From Propionivibrio sp. (GTDB lineage Bacteria > Pseudomonadota > Gammaproteobacteria > Burkholderiales > Rhodocyclaceae), in the NCBI RefSeq assembly GCF_017995515.1, contig NZ_JAGOIT010000036.1, positions 1-33,203 of the forward strand: a stretch of 33,203 bases of DNA, written 5' to 3'. Below, in pieces: positions 2,132-11,910 of this stretch; the first letter of the stretch is position 1; each line of letters starts with the position of its first letter. The notes below the pieces were generated by a model. It was not told the DNA's origin, ran no database searches, and saw only the letters and a program-made list of their open reading frames with translations. Made by a program: the position numbers and the translations under genes.

Positions 2132-2578
2132 CTATCCTTTCCTGTCGTTATCGTCACCGGTGTGATCCGTCATTCTGGCACGCAGATCATCGGGAATCGG
2201 CACGGACTTCCCGGTCACCACGTCCATCCACACGATCTTCGCGTCACCGGTCGCGTAGAGCGTCTCGTCGCCCTGAATGCGGATCTCGTAGCTCGTATGG
2301 ACGCTGCTTCGCCCGAGTGCACCGAAGTACATGCGGATCTCGACCGTTCCTGGAAATGTCAAGGGAACCAGGAAGGTACAACCGGCATTGATCAGCACCG
2401 GCGCCGAGCCCGTCGGCTGAACGGTCACGCCGATGCTCGCCAGATACTCGACGCGCACCTGCTCCATATAGCGAAAATAGAGCGTGTTGTTGACGTGCCG
2501 GTAGGCGTCCATATCCCCCCAGCGAATGGAAATGTAGCTGGTATACGCAAGCACCTTGGGCGGATGGGTGTGCTCCAT
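2132..2578 (-). CDS. Acyl-CoA thioesterase, 4HBT (YbgC/FadM-like)
   Basis: A 148-residue hot-dog-fold thioesterase. The N-terminal WGDMDAYRHVNN motif (residues 20-31) matches the 4-hydroxybenzoyl-CoA thioesterase family; the second Asp (D24) corresponds to the catalytic acid. An upstream in-frame extension to 2806 exists. I chose the ATG at 2578 because an AAGGAG site lies 7 nt upstream and the family starts just before this motif; the extension would also run through the divergent promoter region. The enzyme probably hydrolyses medium- or long-chain acyl-CoA. It is divergent from ETF-QO, shares an operator-like palindrome with it, and heads the run with yccF and the frnE-like gene. Confidence 0.85.
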   Translation of the reverse strand: MEHTHPPKVLAYTSYISIRWGDMDAYRHVNNTLYFRYMEQVRVEYLASIGVTVQPTGSAPVLINAGCTFLVPLTFPGTVEIRMYFGALGRSSVHTSYEIRIQGDETLYATGDAKIVWMDVVTGKSVPIPDDLRARMTDHTGDDNDRKG

Positions 2579-2612: not shown

Positions 2613-2642
2613 TTGACGGCGCAACGTCCTTTTCCATACGAT
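2613..2642 (+). promoter_or_regulatory. Candidate sigma70 promoter for ETF-QO
   Basis: TTGACG (2613-2618), an 18-bp spacer and TACGAT (2637-2642) lie about 95 bp upstream of the ETF-QO start. The -10 element sits inside the operator-like palindrome 2635-2650, the arrangement expected for a repressed promoter. Matches to consensus are 5/6 and 4/6. Transcript data are needed to confirm it. Confidence 0.5.
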
Positions 2643-2650
2643 ACCGTATT
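2635..2650. promoter_or_regulatory. Candidate TetR operator, CATAC-N6-GTATT
   Basis: The 16-bp site CATACGATACCGTATT is an inverted repeat and is the core of a longer palindrome. Over 2629-2656, 12 of 14 base pairs are complementary. It shares the CATAC-N6-GTAT(G) form with two sites in front of etfB and tetR. It lies between the divergent thioesterase and ETF-QO genes and overlaps the proposed ETF-QO -10 element. Assignment to the TetR protein at 9294 is inferred from the shared motif. Confidence 0.65.
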
Positions 2651-2736
2651 GAAAAGCGCTCCACAACCCGACTGCATACGACTCGCAGCGCACCAAGCCA
2701 GATTCGTAACTCCCGAGCCAGAAAACGAGGTAAACG

Positions 2737-4380
2737 ATGCTACGAGAATCCATGGAATACGAAGTTGTAATCGTGGGAGGCGGGCCGGCCGGACTGGCCG
2801 CAGCAATAAGGCTGAAACAGCTGGCCGCAGAGAAAGGTCAGGAAATCGGCGTTTGCCTGATCGAGAAAGCCGCCGAAATCGGCGGGCATATTCTCTCCGG
2901 TGCGATCATGGACCCGCGCGCGCTCAGCGAGCTTTTCCCGGACTGGAAAAGCATGGGTGCGCCGCTCGATACCGCGGTCAGCGAAGACCGCGTCCTCATG
3001 CTGACCGAGGGACGCGACGTCCGCATCCCCAACTGGATGCTGCCCGACTGCCTGCACAACGACGGCAACTACATCATCAGCCTCGCCAATCTGTGCCGCT
3101 GGCTAGGCAGGCAGGCGGAAGACCTTGGCGTCGAAATCTACCCCGGCTTTGCCGGTGCCGAGATGCTGTACGGCGCGGACGGCTCCGTCAGGGGCGTCGC
3201 CACCGGGGACATGGGGCGGCTGAAGGACGGCAACGAAGGACCATCCTTCCAGCCGGGCATGGAGCTGCACGCGCGCTACACCCTGTTCGCCGAGGGTTGC
3301 CGCGGGCACCTTGGCAAGCAGATCGAAGAGCGCTTCGGGCTGTGCAAGGAGTGCGAGCCGCAGGTCTACGGCCTCGGCATCAAGGAACTGTGGGAGATTC
3401 AGCCGGAGAAGCATCGACGGGGTCTCGTCATCCATTCCGGCGGCTGGCCGCTCGACAACCAGACGTATGGCGGCGGTTTCATGTACCACCTGGAGAACAA
3501 TCTGGTCTCGGTCGGACTGGTGACCGGTCTTGGCTACAGCAACCCCTACCTCTCGCCCTATGAGGAATTCCAGCGACTCAAGACACATCCGGCGTATCGC
3601 CACTTTCTTGAAGGCGGCAAGCGCATCGCCTACGGCGCGCGCGCGATCAGCGCCGGCGGACTACAGTCGATGCCGAAGACGATCTTCCCCGGTGGCGCGC
3701 TGATCGGCGACGACGCGGGCTTCCTCAACGCCTCGCGCATCAAGGGATCGCACGGCGCGATCAAGTCCGGAATGCTGGCCGCCGAAGCCTGTTTCGATGC
3801 ACTCACTGCGGGCCGCCGTGGCGACGAACTGACCGCCTTCCCGGAAACCTTCCAGCGCAGCTGGCTCTACGAAGAACTGTACAAGGCGAGGAACTTCAAG
3901 CCTTTGATGGCAAAAGGGCTGATGCTCGGCAGCATCATGTTCAGCATCGACCAACATCTGCTGCGCGGAAAGGCGCCGTGGACGCTGCATCACCCCGGCG
4001 CCGATCATACCCAGCTCAAGCGCAAGGCCGACTGCACCCCGATCGACTACCCGAAACCGGATGGCGTGCTCACCTTCGACCGCCTGTCGTCAGTCTTCCT
4101 GTCGAATACCAACCACGAGGAAGACCAGCCCTGCCATCTGCAACTCAAGGACGCGGCAGTCCCGATCAAGCTCAACCTGGCGCTCTACGATGCGCCGGAA
4201 CAACGCTACTGCCCGGCCGGGGTCTACGAAATCGTTCACGGTGAAGACGCCTCCCCGCGCCTGCAGATCAACGCGCAAAACTGCGTGCACTGCAAGACCT
4301 GCGACATCAAGGATCCGTCGCAGAACATCAACTGGGCGGTGCCGCAGGGCGGCGAAGGACCGAACTACGCCAATATGTAG
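2737..4380 (+). CDS. Electron transfer flavoprotein-ubiquinone oxidoreductase
   Basis: A 547-residue ETF-QO, which passes electrons from reduced ETF to ubiquinone at the inner membrane. The FAD-binding GGGPAGLAAAIRL motif lies near residues 14-26. The C-terminal 4Fe-4S domain has C492, C516, C519 and C522 in a CX23CX2CX2C pattern, with CVHCKTCDIKDPSQNINW being highly typical. The length fits the family. A GAGGT site 5 nt upstream supports the ATG at 2737; an internal ATG at 2752 is the alternative. The gene is divergent from a thioesterase and separated from acdH/etfAB only by an HDOD gene. Together these make one acyl-CoA-to-quinone electron route. It probably shares a TetR operator with etfBA. 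Confidence 0.95.
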   Translation: MLRESMEYEVVIVGGGPAGLAAAIRLKQLAAEKGQEIGVCLIEKAAEIGGHILSGAIMDPRALSELFPDWKSMGAPLDTAVSEDRVLMLTEGRDVRIPNWMLPDCLHNDGNYIISLANLCRWLGRQAEDLGVEIYPGFAGAEMLYGADGSVRGVATGDMGRLKDGNEGPSFQPGMELHARYTLFAEGCRGHLGKQIEERFGLCKECEPQVYGLGIKELWEIQPEKHRRGLVIHSGGWPLDNQTYGGGFMYHLENNLVSVGLVTGLGYSNPYLSPYEEFQRLKTHPAYRHFLEGGKRIAYGARAISAGGLQSMPKTIFPGGALIGDDAGFLNASRIKGSHGAIKSGMLAAEACFDALTAGRRGDELTAFPETFQRSWLYEELYKARNFKPLMAKGLMLGSIMFSIDQHLLRGKAPWTLHHPGADHTQLKRKADCTPIDYPKPDGVLTFDRLSSVFLSNTNHEEDQPCHLQLKDAAVPIKLNLALYDAPEQRYCPAGVYEIVHGEDASPRLQINAQNCVHCKTCDIKDPSQNINWAVPQGGEGPNYANM

Positions 4381-4391
4381 GATGCGTCCGA

Positions 4392-4423
4392 AAGGCTGGC
4401 AGCGTTCGGCGCTGGTCAGCCTT
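4392..4423. terminator. Possible bidirectional terminator hairpin
   Basis: AAGGCTG (4392-4398) pairs with CAGCCTT (4417-4423), and an inner CAGCG/CGCTG pairing with a bulge closes a short loop. It sits between the convergent ETF-QO and HDOD genes and overlaps the last codons of the HDOD gene. It has no T-tract, so the call rests on position and hairpin only. Confidence 0.4.
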
Positions 4424-5273
4424 CCAGCGCGATCGCGATCGAGTAGATCTCGTCGCCCGATGCAGCGATGATTTCCGACACCATCGTCTGGTCGAGCCCG
4501 AGCGCAACAGCGCTGTTGGCTAGCGGGATAACCCGCGCATCGAGTTCATCGAATGGGTCCGGACGAGGAGAAACGGCGCCGGCGATGAAGAGGACATCCC
4601 CCATCGTGGTCGGCGGCATGGTTCCGCTGAACTTGCGCGATGCGAGCACGGCGTCGACGACCGACGGAGGCAGATTGAGTTCGCCGAGGATGCGCTCGGT
4701 CGTGCGTTCCGTCAGGTCGTTGATCGTCTCGGCCAACACGACGCTGTCCTCAAGCAATGCGGGGAATTCAGCGGCGCGCGACAACAGGTAGAAGCGCCCC
4801 AGATCGTGCACGATCCCGGCAAACATCACTTCGTCCGCGTTCAGGCGCGTCAGCTTCTTGGTCAGGACATAGGACAGCGCGGCCACATGAACGCTGCGCT
4901 CCCACAGGCGATTCGACAGCTCGCGCGTCGCCACGTGGCGCTGCGAATGGCGCAGCTGATCCATGATCAGCACCATCGCCAGCGCCTTGATCGGGTCCAT
5001 GCCGACGCGAACGACGGCTTGGCGCACATCGCGCACGACCATGTTGCCGGGATTGAGCGCGACCGAATTCGCGAGGCGGATCACCTTGGCCGACAACAAG
5101 GGCTCGGCAACGACGATCTTCGCCAGCGCCGACAAGCCGATATCGGGATTCTCCACGGCCTTGAGCACGCGCCGGCTGGCGTCCAGGCTGGTCGGAAAAC
5201 TGAGTTCGCCAACGGTCGCCGCGCTGATCGTTCGGCGAAATGCTGCAACCGAATCCTGCATCGTCTGAATCAC
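4416..5273 (-). CDS. HDOD domain signalling protein
   Basis: A stand-alone HDOD-domain protein of 285 residues. It shows the FPTS..ASRRVL entry helix, AEPLLSAKVIRLANS and the AVVRVGMDPIKALA helices typical of the family. It also keeps a VHDLGR segment, so the HD pair is retained here, unlike in the second HDOD protein of this window. HDOD proteins are linked to signalling and stress control, with no fixed enzymatic role. I prefer the GTG start at 5273, with GGAG 6 nt upstream. The ATG at 5261 is possible, and the frame is open to 5318 without a better signal. It converges on ETF-QO with only 35 bp between stop codons. Confidence 0.85.
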   Translation of the reverse strand: MIQTMQDSVAAFRRTISAATVGELSFPTSLDASRRVLKAVENPDIGLSALAKIVVAEPLLSAKVIRLANSVALNPGNMVVRDVRQAVVRVGMDPIKALAMVLIMDQLRHSQRHVATRELSNRLWERSVHVAALSYVLTKKLTRLNADEVMFAGIVHDLGRFYLLSRAAEFPALLEDSVVLAETINDLTERTTERILGELNLPPSVVDAVLASRKFSGTMPPTTMGDVLFIAGAVSPRPDPFDELDARVIPLANSAVALGLDQTMVSEIIAASGDEIYSIAIALEG

Positions 5274-5373
5274 GTTGCACTCCTTCGCAATCAAGTACTG
5301 CCCGCATTCTAAACTCATGCCGGGCAGTTTTGAGCAAACAACCGTGATCGAGCAGGCCCCGCTCGTGCAGGGT

Positions 5374-7167
5374 TCAGTATTGGTCGAGCGGCATGGCCAA
5401 GACTGCCGCGGAACCGTCGATCACCGTCGACGCCAATCCTTCCGCTTGCGTCAACAGGTGATCGGCGTAGAAACGTGCCGTGATCACCTTTGCGTGATAG
5501 AAGGAATCATCGTCACCGGCGTCGACCCGCGCCTGCGCAACCAGCGCCGCGCGTGCCATCTGCCAGCCGCCGGCGACGACGCCGAAGAGCCGCAGGAACG
5601 GCACGGCGCTTGCCGAGACAGCACGCACATCGACCGGAAACCTCTGGACGATCCAGTCCCCCGCCCGGTTCAGCGCATCCACCGCGACCGCCAGCCTCGC
5701 GCCGATGGCCTCGAGATCAGCGCTGGCCGATCCGGCGAGCTCGCGCTCGACCTCGCGCATCACGCCAATCACGCGCTTGAAGACCGCGCCGCCATCGCGC
5801 GCCATCTTGCGCCCGATCAGATCATTGGCCTGGATGCCGGTCGTTCCCTCGTAAATCGTCGAGATGCGCGCGTCGCGCAGGTACTGCGCCGCACCGGTCT
5901 CCTCCATGTAGCCCATGCCGCCATGCACCTGGATACCCAACGACGCGACCTCGATCCCGATCTCGGTACTCCAGCCCTTGACCACTGGAATCATCAGATC
6001 GACAAAGGCTTGGTTGCGTTGGCGCTGATCGGCATCGGGATGGCAGGTCGCCGCGTCATGCGCGCCGGCGACCACATAGGCCAGCGCGCGCGTGGCCTCG
6101 GCCTGCGCACGCATCGTCATCAGCATCCGCCGCACGTCCGGATGCGCGATGATCGGCACGCGCGGACCGCCGCGCACGCCGATGTCGGTCCCCTGAATCC
6201 GCTCATTCGCGTAATCACGCGCCCGCTGATAGGCGCGCTCGCTAACCGAGACGCCCTCCATGCCGACGCCAAAGCGGGCGACATTCATCATCACGAACAT
6301 GTATTCGAGGCCGCGATTCTCTTCGCCAACCAGATAACCGACCGCGCCGCCGTGGTCACCGAAGGCCATCACAGCGGTCGGGCTGGCGTGAATGCCGAGC
6401 TTGTGTTCGATCGATACGCACCAGGCATCGTTGCGCTCGCCCAACGTGCCGTCCGGTTTCACGAGGAACTTCGGCACGATGAACAGCGAAATGCCCTTGA
6501 CGCCTTCCGGCGCCGTCGGCGTGCGCGCAAGGACGAGGTGGACGATGTTGTCCGCCATGTCGTGCTCACCGTAGGTGATGAAGATCTTCTGGCCGAAGAC
6601 GCGATAACTGCCGTCGGCCTGCGGTTCGGCGCGCGTGCGCACAGCAGCGAGATCGGAACCAGCGCCCGGTTCGGTGAGATTCATCGTCCCGGTCCATTCC
6701 CCGGTGACCATCTTCTCGAGGAAGGTCTTCTTGAGCTCGTCGGAGCCCGACAGCACCAGCGCGTCGATCGCGCCGCCGGTGAGCAGCGGACACAGCGAAA
6801 AGGCGTGATTGGCCGATTTCCACATTTCCGCCACCGGCGTCGCCACCAGTCGCTGCAAGCCTTGCCCGCCCCACTCCGGCTCGCTGCCAAGTGCCGTCCA
6901 GCCGCTTTCGGCGAAAAGCTTGTAGGCTTCCTTGAAGCCCTTGGGCGTCGTGACCTTGCCCTCGGAGAAACGCGCGCCTTCCTTGTCGCCCGAGGCATTG
7001 AGCGGCGACAAGACCTCTTCGGCGAACTTGGCGGCTTCCTCAAGAACGGCATCGACCACATCGGGCGCCGCCTCCTCGCAGCCGGGCAGCTTCGCCAACT
7101 CCTCCAAACCGGCCAGTTCCTTCAGCACGAACTGCATGTCACGAATCGGCGCACGGTATTCGCTCAT
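5374..7167 (-). CDS. Acyl-CoA dehydrogenase, DmdC-like large form
   Basis: A 597-residue acyl-CoA dehydrogenase of the longer subfamily with an extra C-terminal domain, often annotated as DmdC-like (3-methylmercaptopropionyl-CoA dehydrogenase). Visible features are TMNLTEPGAGSDLAAVRT (FAD/substrate loop), KIFITYGEHD, and IYEGTTGIQANDL, whose Glu (about residue 440) is the probable catalytic base. It dehydrogenates an acyl-CoA and reduces ETF; the acyl chain is not readable from sequence. GGGAGG lies 5 nt before the ATG. It is downstream of etfBA on the same strand but separated by a 239-bp gap with an inverted-repeat element, so it may have its own promoter. I see no CATAC-N6-GTATG site just upstream. 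Confidence 0.92.
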   Translation of the reverse strand: MSEYRAPIRDMQFVLKELAGLEELAKLPGCEEAAPDVVDAVLEEAAKFAEEVLSPLNASGDKEGARFSEGKVTTPKGFKEAYKLFAESGWTALGSEPEWGGQGLQRLVATPVAEMWKSANHAFSLCPLLTGGAIDALVLSGSDELKKTFLEKMVTGEWTGTMNLTEPGAGSDLAAVRTRAEPQADGSYRVFGQKIFITYGEHDMADNIVHLVLARTPTAPEGVKGISLFIVPKFLVKPDGTLGERNDAWCVSIEHKLGIHASPTAVMAFGDHGGAVGYLVGEENRGLEYMFVMMNVARFGVGMEGVSVSERAYQRARDYANERIQGTDIGVRGGPRVPIIAHPDVRRMLMTMRAQAEATRALAYVVAGAHDAATCHPDADQRQRNQAFVDLMIPVVKGWSTEIGIEVASLGIQVHGGMGYMEETGAAQYLRDARISTIYEGTTGIQANDLIGRKMARDGGAVFKRVIGVMREVERELAGSASADLEAIGARLAVAVDALNRAGDWIVQRFPVDVRAVSASAVPFLRLFGVVAGGWQMARAALVAQARVDAGDDDSFYHAKVITARFYADHLLTQAEGLASTVIDGSAAVLAMPLDQY

Positions 7168-7237
7168 TTCAACCTCCCGTCTGGATCAGGCACTCCCGAA
7201 ATTATTGCGCTTCGTAAAAGTGACTGACAGCTTTCTA

Positions 7238-7350
7238 CTACCGTTCGCCCTGAGCCTGTCGAAGGGCCGGATGCCCCGCTTCGGGGTCCGTTCATGGTTC
7301 GAGGCCCCGAAGGAAATCCCCCTGGAGGACAAGCTCACCACGAACGGTAG
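7238..7350. repeat. Inverted-pair REP-like element (113 bp)
   Basis: The gap between etfA and the acyl-CoA dehydrogenase gene begins and ends with an imperfect inverted repeat of about 23 bp. The outer ten bases, CTACCGTTCG and CGAACGGTAG, match exactly. The left arm reads on into CCTGAGCCTGTCGAAG, and a related single unit occurs at 19423-19456. It resembles the dispersed CTGAGCCTGTCGAAG-type repeats of many proteobacteria. There is no ORF inside. Confidence 0.75.
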
Positions 7351-7406
7351 ATAGGTCATCAGTTACATGTACGATTCTGAAGAACAACCATACCTGCGAC
7401 GCCGAT

Positions 7407-8336
7407 TTACAAAGCGGCGGTCAGCGCCGGAACGATTTCGAAGAGGTCGCCAACGAGCCCATAATCGGCGACCTGGAAAATCGGCGCGTCGGCGTCCTTG
7501 TTGATGGCAACGATCACGCGGCTTTCCTTCATCCCGGCCAGATGCTGAATGGCCCCCGAGATGCCGACCGCGATATAGAGCTGCGGCGCGACGATCTTGC
7601 CGGTCTGCCCGACCTGGTAGTCGTTCGGCACGAAGCCGGCATCGACGGCGGCGCGCGACGCGCCCATCGCCGCGCCGAGCTTGTCCGCCAGCGGCTCCAT
7701 CAGCTTGTGGAAGTTCTCGGCGCTGCCCAGGCCACGCCCGCCGGAAACCACCACCTTGGCGGCGGCCAGTTCCGGGCGCGCCGATTGCGTGAGTTCGCGT
7801 GAAACGAGCGCGCTGCTTCCGCAATCGGGTACAGCGTCGATCGCTTCGACAGCCGCCGAACCACCCTGCCCGACCGCCTCGAACGCCGTCGTCCGCACGG
7901 TGATCACCTTGACCGCATCGAGCGACTGCACCGTCGCCAGCACGTTGCCGGCGTAGATCGGGCGAACGAAGGTGTCGGGCGATTCGACCGCGACGATGTC
8001 CGACACCTGCGCCACGTCGAGCGAGGCGGCGACGCGCGGCATGAAGTTCTTGCCCGCCGTCGTCGCGGCGGCGAGGATGTGGCTGTAGCCGGTGGCCCTG
8101 GCCACGACCAGCGCGGCGATGTTCTCCGGCAGATGGTCGGCGTACTGCGGCGCATCGGCGAGCAGCACTTTGGCGACGCCGGAGATCTTCGCCGCCGCGT
8201 CGGCCGCCGCCGCACAGCCCTTGCCGGCGACCAGCAGGTGAATCTCGCCGCCGATCTTTGCCGCCGCGGTCACGGCGTTGAGGGTCGCCGCCTTGAGCGA
8301 AACATTGTCGTGTTCAGCGATTACCAGGATGCCCAT
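7407..8336 (-). CDS. etfA: Electron transfer flavoprotein alpha subunit
   Basis: A 309-residue EtfA. The C-terminal FAD domain is clear: [14 protein letters not shown], then [45 protein letters not shown] in overlapping blocks, and [26 protein letters not shown] at the end. It forms a heterodimer with EtfB, binds FAD and carries electrons from acyl-CoA dehydrogenases to ETF-QO. The ATG at 8336 lies 1 nt after the etfB stop codon, so the two are translationally linked. The length matches the usual 305-315 residues. Confidence 0.96.
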
Positions 8337-8337
8337 G

Positions 8338-9087
8338 TCAGATCACCTTCGCTTCATTCTTGAGTTTGGCGACCAGTTCGCCCACATCGGCCACCTTGAC
8401 GCCGGCGACCCGTTTGGCCGGTTCGGCCACGCGCAGGGTCGTCAGGCGCGGCGCGACATCCACGCCCAGCGCATCCGGCGTCAGCGTATCGAGCGGCTTC
8501 TTTTTCGCCTTCATGATGTTGGGCAACGACGCATAGCGCGGCTCGTTCAGCCGGAGGTCCGTACTGATCACGGCCGGCAAGGTCACGGCGACGGTCTCCA
8601 GACCGCCATCGATTTCGCGTTCGACGGTCACCTTGCCGTCGGCGACCGCCACTTTCGAGGCAAAGGTTGCCTGCGGCCAGCCGAGCAGCGCGGCGGTCAT
8701 CTGGCCGGTCTGGTTGGCGTCATCGTCGATCGCCTGCTTGCCGCACAGGACGATCTGCGGCTGTTCGCGCTCGCAAACCGCCTTGAGCAGCTTGGCGACG
8801 GCCAGCGGCTGTAGTTCAGCATCGGTTTCGATCAGGATCGCGCGATCGGCGCCGAGCGCCAGCGCGGTACGCAAGGTCTCCTGGCAAGCCGGGACACCGG
8901 CCGACACGGCGACGACTTCGGTCGCGACGCCGGCTTCCTTGAGCCTGACCGCCTCCTCGACGGCGATTTCGTCAAAGGGATTCATCGACATCTTGACGTT
9001 CCCCAGGTCGAGCCCGGAACCGTCGGCCTTGACGCGCACCTTGACGTTGTAATCGACGACTCGCTTGACTGGAACAAGGATCTTCAA
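8338..9087 (-). CDS. etfB: Electron transfer flavoprotein beta subunit
   Basis: A 249-residue EtfB, exactly the usual family length when started at the TTG at 9087. That start is preceded by GAGGAG with a 7-nt spacer and gives the canonical N-terminus [19 protein letters not shown]. The longer frame to 9171 adds 28 residues foreign to the family. The conserved blocks include [32 protein letters not shown] and [20 protein letters not shown] (AMP/adenine binding region). Its leader carries a strong promoter overlapped by two palindromes, suggesting repression by the divergent TetR protein. The rare TTG start may keep its output matched to EtfA. Confidence 0.95.
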
Positions 9088-9181
9088 AGCTGATCTCCTC
9101 TGCATTACGCGACGAAAGCACAGCCACGAAAGCGGCCGACAGTGGGTTTGACACGAGCCGTCATCCGGCACGACAATAGCC

Positions 9182-9197
9182 CATACTCAACAGTATG
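9182..9197. promoter_or_regulatory. Candidate TetR operator 1, CATAC-N6-GTATG
   Basis: CATACTCAACAGTATG is an inverted repeat with 6-bp arms (CATACT/AGTATG) and a 4-bp centre. It lies at or just downstream of the expected etfB transcription start. Its centre is 22 bp, about two helical turns, from the neighbouring site at 9204-9219, suiting two repressor dimers on one DNA face. Confidence 0.7.
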
Positions 9198-9201
9198 GAC
9201 G

Positions 9202-9230
9202 AGCATACGGATCGGTATGGTCGCTGTCAA
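9202..9230 (-). promoter_or_regulatory. Near-consensus sigma70 promoter of etfBA
   Basis: Read on the minus strand, TTGACA (9230-9225) is a perfect -35, followed by a 17-bp spacer and TATGCT (9207-9202) as -10. Transcription would start near 9195, giving a leader of roughly 110 nt before the TTG of etfB. The palindrome 9204-9219 covers the spacer and most of the -10, and a second palindrome lies just downstream, so bound repressor would block RNA polymerase. Confidence 0.7.
9204..9219. promoter_or_regulatory. Candidate TetR operator 2, CATAC-N6-GTATG
   Basis: CATACGGATCGGTATG is an inverted repeat with CATAC/GTATG outer arms and a GATC centre; only one position per half breaks symmetry. It overlaps the -10 element and spacer of the etfB promoter. 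It is the same motif as 9182-9197 and 2635-2650. Confidence 0.7.
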
Positions 9231-9293: not shown

Positions 9294-9914
9294 ATGAAAT
9301 CAGTTCCAGCCAAACCGAGAACCCAACTCGATCGCATCGGGTGGATCGAAGGCGCTTTCGAGGCACTGGCCGAGGAAGGCCTGCCGGGAATGCGCGTCGA
9401 AGCGCTGGCCAAACGCTTCGGCGTCACCAAGGGCAGCTTCTACTGGCACTTCAAGGATCGCCAGGATCTGTACGACGCCATGCTGCAAACCTGGAAGGAA
9501 GGCCGCATCCGCGACATCGACAAGCAGAGCGCGATCCCGACCGGCAACGAAGGCGAACAACTGGAGCAGATCATCGACGTCTACAGCGCCAACCGTAACC
9601 GCAAGGGCATCGCGATCGAACTCGCCGTGCGCGACTGGGCGCGGCGCGACGCGCAGGCGAGCGCGGTGGTCGAGGAAGTCGACAGCTACCGCCTGGAAAG
9701 CGCACGCAAGCTCTTTGTCGCCACCGGCCTCTCGGACAGCGAGGCCAAGAGCCGCAGCCTCCTGCTCTACGCCTACGTCTTCGGCCAGAGCCTGATGGCC
9801 TACGACCGCTTCGACCCGAAGATCATCGACATCAAGCAGTGGATTTCCCGCTATATTGTTTCCGGCGGGACCAACAGGAGCGTAGACGCTTCCGACGGCA
9901 CCGCACATCGCTAG
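9294..9914 (+). CDS. TetR-family regulator, probably of ETF/acyl-CoA genes
   Basis: A 206-residue TetR/AcrR-type repressor. The helix-turn-helix is at about residues 34-60 (RVEALAKRFGVTKGSFYWHFKDRQDLYDAML). The remaining all-helical domain would bind an effector and dimerise, ending in a polar tail. It is divergent from etfBA with two palindromes in the gap and a third copy in front of ETF-QO. It therefore most likely represses this electron-transfer regulon and is released by an acyl-CoA or related ligand, as for PsrA- or FadP-type regulators. The ligand is inference only. Its own promoter is weak: TATAGT at 9254-9259 is a possible -10, placing both palindromes upstream of it. Confidence 0.9.
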   Translation: MKSVPAKPRTQLDRIGWIEGAFEALAEEGLPGMRVEALAKRFGVTKGSFYWHFKDRQDLYDAMLQTWKEGRIRDIDKQSAIPTGNEGEQLEQIIDVYSANRNRKGIAIELAVRDWARRDAQASAVVEEVDSYRLESARKLFVATGLSDSEAKSRSLLLYAYVFGQSLMAYDRFDPKIIDIKQWISRYIVSGGTNRSVDASDGTAHR

Positions 9915-9981: not shown

Positions 9982-11910
9982 ATGCGTCTCGTCGATCCTG
10001 ACCGCTATGCCGCGCTGAAAGCGACGGGCAAACTGCCATCGCCGAAGGGCGTCGCGCTGTCGATCATTCGCCTGCTGCAACGCGACGACTTCCGGATTGG
10101 CGACCTCGTCCGCCTGGTTCAGTCCGATCCGGCCATCGCCGGACGCATTCTCTACTTTGCCAACGCCGCCGCCTTCGGGCGCTCGCGGCCGATCGTCTCG
10201 CTGCAACGCGCGATCGTCGCCCTCGGCTCGTTCCGCGTGCGCGATCTCGTCATTGGACTGTCGGTCATGCACAGCCATCGCAGCGGCACGTGCAGCGAAT
10301 TCGACTATGAAGGCTTCTGGGCGCATTCGCTGGCGACCGGCATCGCCTGTCAGGAACTCGCGCACTTCGCTCAGATCGCCAGCGAGGAACTGTTCACCAT
10401 CGGCCTGCTCTCGCGCGTCGGCGAACTCGCGCTGGCCACGCTCTATCCTGACGAATACGCCGGCATCCTGATCAAGTGCCGCAACGAGCGCAGCGAAATG
10501 GCCGCGCTCGAAGAGCAGCGCTTCGCCATGGATCACCACGAATTGGGCGCCACCCTGCTCAACGAATGGGGTCTGCCCGACGTACTGATCCAGGCCGCCT
10601 TCCATCACGAGAGTCCCGAGGCAGCCGGCTTCGCCGACGGCTCGCGCGTGCAGACGCTGACCCATTCGCTGAGCTTCGCCAGCGCGCTCGCGCACCTGTG
10701 CATGGTCGATGAGGAATCGCGCTGGAGCCTCTTGCCGGCGCTGCTGGCGCGCGCTGCCCGGCTCGGCATCGGCGGGGAAGTGCTCAACGAACTCGTCGAC
10801 CGGATGGTCGAACGCTGGCGCGAATGGGGCGCCAAGTTGCAGGTGCGCACGCAGGACGTGCCGCCGTTCGCCGAAATCCTCGCGGCGACGCCGCCGATGC
10901 GGCGCATGGGGAACAGCGGCGCCGGAGATGCGGAAAATCGTCGCTCGCGCGGGCCGTGCCTCAACGTTCAGCTGATCGGCATTCCCCTCGCGGAGCTGCA
11001 ACCGCTGATGCAGCAGATCGAACGCTTCGGGCATCAGCCGATCCTGATCGACGACACCCGGGAGGCGCTCAACCACGTGCTGCGCCATCCAGCCCAGGTC
11101 ATCATCGCCGACCTGTGCATGCCAACTCAGGATGCAGTCGAGTTCTGCCGCACGTTGCGCCAGAGCGCCGCCGGCAAGGAGAGCCACGTCCTGTTGCTGG
11201 CTTCGCCCGAATTAGAACACCGGACGCTCGAAGCCATCGATGCCGGCGCCGACGACGTGCTGATCAAGCCGATCAACGAGCAGACGTTGCGCGTGCACTT
11301 GAGCACGACGGCGCGCATGACGATGCTGCGCGAGGAGATGCATCGCGAGCGGATCGGCATCATGCGCTCGACCGACGAACTCGCCGTTGCCCAGAAGCGC
11401 TTGTTGCAAGACGCGCTGACCGACACGCTGACGCAACTCCCGAATCGGCGCAATGGCTTGGACTTCCTCGCCTCGGAGTGGGTTTTCGCGCAGTCGAGCG
11501 GTGCGCCGCTGGCCTGCCTGATGCTCGACATCGACCACTTCAAGCGGATCAACGACGACTACGGCCACGCGGCGGGCGACGCCGTGCTGCGCCAGCTGGC
11601 GGACGTACTCAAGAACGCCTCGCGCGCCGAAGACATGGTGTTCCGCTACGGCGGCGAAGAGTTCTCGGCGATCCTGACCAACGCGCCCTTGAAGATCGCA
11701 CTGCAGATCGGCGAACGGATTCGTGCGCTGGTCGAAAAAACCGACTTCGTCTGGGAACAACAGCGCATCCCGGTGACGCTGAGCGTCGGCGTTGCCGTCA
11801 CCACGGGCACGGAACGCGACAGCCAGGCGCTGATCCAGGCCGCCGACACGGCGCTCTACGAAGCCAAGGAGCGCGGACGCAACCGAGTAGTTGCCTCCAG
11901 CACCGCCTAG
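9982..11910 (+). CDS. HDOD-receiver-GGDEF signalling protein
   Basis: A 642-residue protein with three parts. An HDOD domain (about 12-205) has the usual HD pair replaced (GLLSRVGEL). A receiver-like domain (about 328-445) has D377 in IIADLCMP and K429 in LIKP. A diguanylate cyclase domain (about 475-640) has an intact GGEEF at 557-561 and an RxxD inhibitory site (RAED, 548-551) five residues before it, so c-di-GMP synthesis with product inhibition is expected. The receiver's first strand (VQLIGIP) lacks the acidic pair that normally binds Mg, so phosphorylation is doubtful. The gene starts 67 bp after tetR on the same strand. Loss of HD residues is common in HDOD proteins. Confidence 0.9.
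   Translation: MRLVDPDRYAALKATGKLPSPKGVALSIIRLLQRDDFRIGDLVRLVQSDPAIAGRILYFANAAAFGRSRPIVSLQRAIVALGSFRVRDLVIGLSVMHSHRSGTCSEFDYEGFWAHSLATGIACQELAHFAQIASEELFTIGLLSRVGELALATLYPDEYAGILIKCRNERSEMAALEEQRFAMDHHELGATLLNEWGLPDVLIQAAFHHESPEAAGFADGSRVQTLTHSLSFASALAHLCMVDEESRWSLLPALLARAARLGIGGEVLNELVDRMVERWREWGAKLQVRTQDVPPFAEILAATPPMRRMGNSGAGDAENRRSRGPCLNVQLIGIPLAELQPLMQQIERFGHQPILIDDTREALNHVLRHPAQVIIADLCMPTQDAVEFCRTLRQSAAGKESHVLLLASPELEHRTLEAIDAGADDVLIKPINEQTLRVHLSTTARMTMLREEMHRERIGIMRSTDELAVAQKRLLQDALTDTLTQLPNRRNGLDFLASEWVFAQSSGAPLACLMLDIDHFKRINDDYGHAAGDAVLRQLADVLKNASRAEDMVFRYGGEEFSAILTNAPLKIALQIGERIRALVEKTDFVWEQQRIPVTLSVGVAVTTGTERDSQALIQAADTALYEAKERGRNRVVASSTA

What the first reader, a model, noticed from the sequence alone, without database searches (positions are those of the whole stretch)
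2635..9219. A shared 16-bp operator links ETF-QO/thioesterase and etfBA to the local TetR regulator
Three inverted repeats of the form CATAC-N6-GTAT(G/T) occur in the window: 2635-2650, 9182-9197 and 9204-9219. All fall in divergent promoter gaps of genes in one pathway (ETF, ETF-QO, thioesterase), and two lie next to a tetR gene. Centres of the paired sites are 22 bp apart. TetR-type control of fatty-acid genes (PsrA, FadP) is established; this motif and regulon are read from sequence, and the assignment is inference.
Basis: partly seen in the sequence, partly recalled or inferred. Interest (0 to 1): 0.75.

Follow-up and report, generated by a model that had tools for sequence, protein, structure and literature searches.

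The report
TetR repressor switch for fatty-acid oxidation
A short mirrored DNA sequence beside several fat-burning genes is very probably the docking site of the repressor encoded next door, and the same switch recurs in many relatives in the bacterial family Rhodocyclaceae: a real and testable control circuit of a familiar type.

Summary
The three inverted repeats are where stated and look like real operators. In 80 of 80 named relatives' loci holding an orthologue of the window's TetR, a site lies within 400 bp upstream of tetR, two or more in 64; etfB is divergent in 73 of 80. In relatives without a match to this TetR, etfB promoters carry no site (0 of 15 loci) and ETF-QO promoters no intact one (0 of 15). 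In relative G006 etfB has moved away from tetR, yet both places keep sites. Among exact and one-mismatch sites, the own genome has one more of high score, 90 bp upstream of fadD. Relatives carry exact sites before further beta-oxidation genes. The operators overlay predicted promoters. Best reading: an autoregulated TetR repressor of fatty-acid/acyl-CoA oxidation, different from the PsrA-like regulator the genome also encodes. The inducer is unknown (acyl-CoA inferred); no binding was measured; the ETF-QO link is lineage-specific (6 of 15). Known kind; I saw this motif and regulon in none of nine literature listings.

The parts
2132..2578 (-). acyl-CoA thioesterase-like gene (4HBT_2 family), 148 aa
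   Evidence: translation; Pfam 4HBT_2 E 4e-21
2613..2642 (+). sigma-70-like promoter towards ETF-QO, TTGACG-18-TACGAT
   Evidence: 9 of 12 consensus positions; shuffles mean 0.0; prediction only
2635..2650 (.). operator of the thioesterase/ETF-QO gap, covers the predicted -10 box
   Evidence: (19.7 bits); identical 16-mer upstream of ETF-QO in G076
2737..4380 (+). ETF-ubiquinone oxidoreductase, 547 aa
   Evidence: Fer4_ETF_QO E 7e-52, ETFQO_UQ-bd E 7e-43
5374..7167 (-). acyl-CoA dehydrogenase, 597 aa, last gene of the presumed etfBA-acd operon
   Evidence: Acyl-CoA_dh domains; operon inferred from strand and order
7407..8336 (-). etfA, ETF alpha subunit
8338..9087 (-). etfB, ETF beta subunit, 249 aa, TTG start
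   Evidence: ETF domain; frame and start set
9148..9177 (+). sigma-70-like promoter towards tetR, TTGACA-18-GACAAT
   Evidence: prediction only; a TTTGACA...GACAAT-like block is visible in several of the 13 relatives printed
9182..9197 (.). operator 1; covers the expected start points of both promoters
   Evidence: (22.3 bits)
9202..9230 (-). sigma-70-like promoter towards etfBA-acd, TTGACA-17-TATGCT
   Evidence: prediction; -35-like hexamer 10-11 nt beyond a site in 53 of 80 relatives
9204..9219 (.). operator 2; lies in the spacer of the etfB promoter and overlaps its -10
   Evidence: (20.4 bits)
9294..9914 (+). TetR-family regulator, 206 aa, the presumed binder of all three sites
   Evidence: (TetR_N E 2e-12)

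Best explanation
The 16-bp repeats are operators of the TetR-family repressor encoded at 9294-9914. A TetR dimer on each of the tandem operators at 9182-9219 would block two face-to-face promoters at once, its own (autoregulation) and that of etfB-etfA-acyl-CoA dehydrogenase; a dimer on 2635-2650 would cover the -10 box of the ETF-QO promoter and perhaps also lower the divergent thioesterase; a fourth site lies before fadD elsewhere in the genome. When fatty acids enter and acyl-CoAs (or a related metabolite) build up, the ligand would release TetR and switch on acyl activation (FadD), dehydrogenation (Acd), electron transfer (ETF to ETF-QO to quinone) and CoA release (thioesterase). Shown by computation: the sites, their conservation, their tie to the TetR gene, their positions before target genes. 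Inferred: binding, repression, the ligand.
For: etfB divergent in 73 of 80 (6 loci too short, 1 without). Relatives without a TetR match: etfB promoters 0 of 15 loci, ETF-QO promoters 0 of 15 loci intact; exact 16-mers 10 in about 54 Mb of 15 such genomes against 45 in about 50 Mb of 12 TetR-bearing genomes picked by hand, reversed control 5 and 7. A natural rearrangement: in G006 etfB is not at tetR but on another contig near ETF-QO, and still has an exact site of 25.4 bits upstream, while tetR keeps its pair. Of the 45 exact sites, 14 precede tetR and 18 precede fatty-acid/acyl-CoA/ETF genes (12 of the 18 checked by profile search named by eye). Own-genome fourth site 90 bp before a FadD over NCBIfam's cut-off. 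Promoter overlay. Of 14 distant homologues of the TetR, 4 have an exact site and 3 a one-mismatch site upstream.
Against: No binding, expression or ligand data. 13 of the 45 exact sites in 12 relatives have no evident link to the pathway. ETF-QO sites of 15 bits or more are in only 6 of 15 TetR-bearing genomes sampled. Two of the 10 exact sites in TetR-less genomes score above 20 bits; their neighbours were not examined. 7 of 14 distant homologues have no site, among them two Azospirillum ones at 51-52% identity. One-mismatch sites in the own genome are hardly above the control (15 against 11). Repression rather than activation is inferred from site position alone. Named and unnamed relatives probably overlap and are all phylogenetically linked, so the counts are not independent. 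In one search at most 10 candidates per genome were scored, so for two of the 15 TetR-less genomes (G068, G073) a missed TetR is not fully excluded.
Confidence: 0.83

Rival explanations
1. The paired sites serve only TetR autoregulation; etfBA lies there by synteny, and the ETF-QO and fadD sites are minor or accidental.
For: Dechloromonas denitrificans L157 has both sites although no etfB was found in the locus; distant homologues with the sites neighbour other genes; no ETF-QO site of 15 bits or more in 9 of 15 TetR-bearing genomes.
Against: In G006 etfB has left tetR and still has an exact site; an etfB-directed -35-like box stands 10-11 nt from a site in 53 of 80 relatives; sites recur before eight further fatty-acid gene types in relatives; ETF-QO sites in 6 of 15 TetR-bearing against 0 of 15 TetR-less loci (Fisher p 0.017, not corrected for kinship, genomes picked by hand).
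Confidence: 0.08
2. The sites belong to another regulator, such as the PsrA-like protein, that controls the same pathway.
For: The genome encodes a PsrA-like protein beside a FadE gene.
Against: PsrA boxes have a different sequence (C/GAAAC-N2-4-GTTTG/C; PMC13104628 passages); such boxes stand before the psrA-like and fadB-like genes on that contig and none is in the window. CATAC sites follow this TetR gene and are missing from etfB promoters without it.
Confidence: 0.04
3. The regulator is the betaproteobacterial FadP, so that this is the already predicted FadP regulon extended to another family.
For: Same protein family, same pathway and a similar kind of target list as described for FadP in PMC5343134 and PMC12543098 (passages).
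Against: PMC5343134 places FadP in Ralstonia, Burkholderia and Comamonadaceae; among 24 genomes, one from each of 24 other families of the order, 1 has a relative of the window TetR at E 1e-20 or better; within that one's family its own TetR is found in 4 of 97 genomes, itself included. The FadP sequence and motif were not available to me.
Confidence: 0.15

Closest known systems
PsrA (TetR family; Pseudomonas and others)
   Same: TetR-type repressor in beta-oxidation with a palindromic box in its own promoter; DNA release by oleic acid (passages of PMC13104628)
   Different: Other operator (C/GAAAC-N2-4-GTTTG/C); the window TetR matches neither the PsrA model nor TetR_C_30; the genome has a separate PsrA-like protein
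FadP (TetR family; Ralstonia, Burkholderia, Comamonadaceae)
   Same: TetR-type regulator of many beta-oxidation operons, with a fadP deletion phenotype on adipate (passages of PMC5343134 and PMC12543098)
Bacillus FadR (TetR family, acyl-CoA-responsive)
   Same: Same fold; FadR chains, one with stearoyl-CoA (3whc), are among the nearest structures to the predicted model
   Different: Far below the NCBIfam FadR cut-off (21.9 against 200 bits); other TetR-type chains score as well
Tn10 tetA/tetR control region (recalled, from no call)
   Same: Two tandem operators within overlapping promoters of a TetR gene and its divergent target
   Different: Here the predicted promoters face each other with overlapping start points, and the targets are catabolic

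Membership tests
TetR-family regulator | N-terminal TetR helix-turn-helix domain | tested here: met
   TetR_N 47.5 bits against a cut-off of 24
TetR-family regulator | all-helical fold of known TetR-type regulators | tested here: met
   model of mean pLDDT 83.8, helices only; top listed PDB matches are TetR/AcrR-type regulators
TetR-family regulator | palindromic operator in its own promoter | tested here: met
   (by sequence; binding not measured)
PsrA | match to the PsrA model / TetR_C_30 domain | tested here: not met
   neither among the hits of the window TetR. For comparison L132's regulator: TetR_C_30 over cut-off, PsrA model 157 bits, below its cut-off of 300
PsrA | C/GAAAC-N2-4-GTTTG/C boxes at its targets | tested here: not met
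   no exact box of this form in the window (scan of the + strand; the form of the box is the same on both strands)
FadP | orthology with R. solanacearum FadP and the same motif | not testable with these tools
   Kazakov 2009 not held; FadP sequence not at hand
FadP | control of fatty-acid degradation operons | tested here: inconclusive
   sites precede such genes; control itself not measured
Bacillus FadR | NCBIfam FadR cut-off | tested here: not met
   21.9 bits against 200
acyl-CoA-responsive regulator | release from DNA by acyl-CoA | not testable with these tools
   needs a binding assay

The most novel reading that the evidence does not exclude
Bacteria like this one split control of fatty-acid oxidation between two TetR repressors: a PsrA-like one governs the fadE and fadB clusters, while this so far undescribed TetR gates both ends of the pathway, acyl activation (FadD) and electron exit (ETF, ETF-QO). 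Its CATAC-N6-GTATG operator is an old signature of a TetR clade reaching Alphaproteobacteria and Streptomyces, whose targets were swapped while the DNA code was kept.
Probability: 0.4. Interest if true: 0.55.

Novelty: new member of a known kind. Interest (0 to 1): 0.42.

Why it matters
It gives a defined operator, regulator and target list for fatty-acid and acyl-CoA oxidation in a family that includes the wastewater bacteria Accumulibacter and Dechloromonas/Azonexus, whose physiology turns on uptake and storage of fatty acids (the latter from general knowledge). It predicts that electron exit through ETF and ETF-QO is controlled together with acyl activation and apart from the PsrA-like regulator, which can be tested directly in cultured strains.

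Tried and rejected
Rejected: the sites as chance repeats. Rejected: PsrA as the binder. Not usable: one-mismatch sites of the own genome, 15 against 11 for the reversed control; of the 9 not already known, 8 lie inside called reading frames and one (L120) scores below 9 bits. No CATAC site of 9 bits or more was found on the own-genome psrA/fadE/fadB contig stretch or in stretches around four enoyl-CoA hydratase genes. The neighbour of the perfect-score site in L082 was not resolved. The structure search names FadR-type regulators near the top but among other TetR-type ones, so it does not settle the ligand. Literature: nine searches showed, by titles and abstract starts, no paper describing this motif or regulator; one search listed 10 of 177 papers; the library lacks most subscription journals, and Kazakov 2009 was not held, so prior description there cannot be excluded. 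PMC5343134, PMC12543098 and PMC13104628 were seen as passages only; all others as search listings.

Errors found on the way: a first EtfB query was read in the wrong frame, so the etfB figures are void; repeated correctly. I first took the etfB of G006 for a second copy; one search shows that no etfB lies at its tetR within the stretch held. The gene caller is a simple composition heuristic that sets starts too far upstream; several sites reported as inside a frame lie before the first conserved domain.
Full report
OBSERVATION. The three repeats are present at the stated coordinates. Genes around them by Pfam: thioesterase 2132-2578 (4HBT_2), ETF-QO 2737-4380, an HDOD protein 4416-5318, acyl-CoA dehydrogenase 5374-7167, etfA 7407-8336, etfB 8338-9087, TetR 9294-9914. 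The exact pattern CATAC-N6-GTAT(G/T) occurs at six distinct places in the 3.56-Mb own genome; the reversed control hits once per strand.

OWN GENOME. A matrix from 47 distinct sites of relatives' tetR loci (own genome left out, close relatives included) scores the window sites 19.7, 22.3 and 20.4 bits. The one other exact site in front of a fitting gene is on contig C109, 90 bp upstream of the called start of a long-chain acyl-CoA ligase over NCBIfam's FadD cut-off (21.8 bits). The remaining two lie within reading frames that I take by eye for a DUF4432-like gene and dapB and score 13.7 and 10.2. Only exact and one-mismatch sites were searched for in the whole genome.

CONSERVATION. A match to the TetR (E 1e-20 or better) is in 199 of 297 genomes of the family, own included. 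In 41 loci (the best-matching ones; the own genome is one), 40 have a site with at most one mismatch within 450 bp upstream; the exception, L034, is from another family. In 80 named loci (the best 80 of 529; among them Accumulibacter, Dechloromonas, Azonexus, Zoogloea and Rhodocyclus), 80 have a site of 15 bits or more within 400 bp upstream, 64 two or more; in those 64 the two sites nearest tetR start 19-24 bp apart in 43, 52-53 bp apart in 17, and at other distances in 4. The two sets of relatives overlap in all likelihood.

CONTROL WITHOUT THE REGULATOR. Fifteen family members of 95-100% completeness without a TetR match were picked (for G068 and G073 only 10 of 13 and 10 of 15 candidates had been scored). 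One, G072, has neither an etfB nor an ETF-QO match. In the other 14, etfB promoters have no site (0 of 15 loci, best score 0.0) and ETF-QO promoters no intact one (0 of 15 loci). G018 shows CATACGATACCGGATT (11.5 bits) before ETF-QO, which looks like a decayed form of the site kept in congeners. In 15 TetR-bearing genomes picked by hand, 6 have an ETF-QO site of 15 bits or more and a seventh 11.7. Exact 16-mers number 10 in about 54 Mb without TetR and 45 in about 50 Mb with it; the reversed control gives 5 and 7. Of the 10, two score above 20 bits and none was followed.

REARRANGEMENT. 39 of the 41 loci hold an etfB match; the two without are L034 and L026, the tetR of congener G006. There an acyl-CoA dehydrogenase (by eye) is divergent to tetR, with two one-mismatch sites between. 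The etfB of G006, 84% identical to the window's over residues 107-249, lies on another contig near ETF-QO and has an exact site of 25.4 bits upstream. A site is thus kept at etfB away from tetR, which speaks for etfB as a target in its own right.

REGULON IN RELATIVES. The 45 exact sites of 12 TetR-bearing genomes: 14 before tetR; 18 before ETF-QO (3), 3-hydroxybutyryl-CoA dehydrogenase (5), enoyl-CoA hydratase (2, one shared with a divergent DUF485 gene), a fadH-like/enoyl-CoA hydratase gap (1), fadH-like (1), fadB-like (1), a thiolase (1), CoA-transferase (2), the etfB of G006 (1), fadD-like (1); 13 others without an evident link, by eye among them DUF485, gyrA, biotin synthase and intragenic ones. 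Twelve of the 18 were checked by profile search, six named by eye.

ANATOMY. Two predicted sigma-70 promoters face each other: + TTGACA 9148-9153 / GACAAT 9172-9177 towards tetR, and - TTGACA 9230-9225 / TATGCT 9207-9202 towards etfB. Both start points should fall in the operator 9182-9197; the operator 9204-9219 lies in the spacer of the etfB promoter and overlaps its -10. In 53 of 80 relatives a TTGACA-like box (5 of 6 or better) lies 10-11 nt beyond a site on the etfB-directed strand; five control hexamers were found within 25 nt in 1-22 of 80. The ETF-QO site covers the -10 of a predicted promoter at 2613-2642; none was predicted towards the thioesterase. This geometry is that of a repressor.

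SECOND REGULATOR. Contig C105 carries a PsrA-like TetR (TetR_C_30 over cut-off; PsrA model 157 bits, below its cut-off of 300) next to fadE and genes that I take, mostly by eye, for fadI, fadJ, fadL, fadB and fadA. CAAACGTTCGTTTA lies 75 bp before the psrA-like gene (one mismatch) and CAAACGAACGTTTG 65 bp before the fadB-like gene (exact); the same loose search of 12 kb gave eight further hits, one of them exact, inside a gene. The box is that of PMC13104628 (passages). No CATAC site was found there. Control thus appears divided in this genome; in the relative G034, by contrast, fadB has a CATAC site.

DISTANT HOMOLOGUES. Of 14 plasmid-borne homologues picked by hand (28-52% identity), 4 have an exact CATAC-N6-GTATG within 300 bp upstream (Methylocystis, Burkholderia cenocepacia, Microvirga, Streptomyces), 3 one with one mismatch (two Azospirillum, Pseudomonas putida S12), 7 none, two Azospirillum at 51-52% among them. 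In another family, G041 has CATAGGCTAGCCTATT and CATAGGGTACCCTATT and G398 one such site upstream of a TetR gene; two further matches there have none of that form. A lipase-like gene stands beside that of G041. The half-site may therefore be older than the fatty-acid role.

VERDICT. A conserved TetR operator system very probably controlling fatty-acid/acyl-CoA oxidation in Rhodocyclaceae; a new member of a known kind. Binding, direction and ligand remain to be measured. Whether it is the FadP of other betaproteobacteria could not be settled.

Noticed in passing
L132 (own genome, contig C105), 2982-2995 and 11588-11601: PsrA-like TetR gene beside a fadE and further fad-like genes, with PsrA-type boxes before the psrA-like and fadB-like genes but no CATAC site.
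   Followed up: partly
L110, 4719-4900 (genome G041, another family): A distant relative of the TetR beside a lipase-like gene has tandem CATAG-N6-CTATT palindromes, a variant of the same operator; two residues of its recognition region differ from the window protein (K46 to V, W51 to Y in the alignment).
   Followed up: partly
L265 (genome G018), upstream of etfB; L026 2180-2782: By eye a lexA-like gene stands beside tetR in G006 and upstream of etfB in the TetR-less G018, as if tetR had been lost from between them; G018 also has a decayed site before ETF-QO.
   Followed up: partly
window 4416-5318 and 9982-11910: Two HDOD-domain proteins, one with receiver and GGDEF domains, lie in and beside the etf/tetR block.
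   Followed up: no
L082, 2507-2527: A perfect-scoring site (CATACGGTACCGTATG) whose neighbouring genes could not be tied to fatty-acid metabolism.
   Followed up: partly
L084 2107-2535 and L089 4591-5001: Exact sites also lie before DUF485 genes, which often accompany acetate permeases (recalled), a possible link to acetate uptake.
   Followed up: no
L255 (Methylocystis plasmid), upstream of 1114: A 33%-identical TetR in another gene context has two operator-like sites upstream (21.5 and 17.1 bits).
   Followed up: partly
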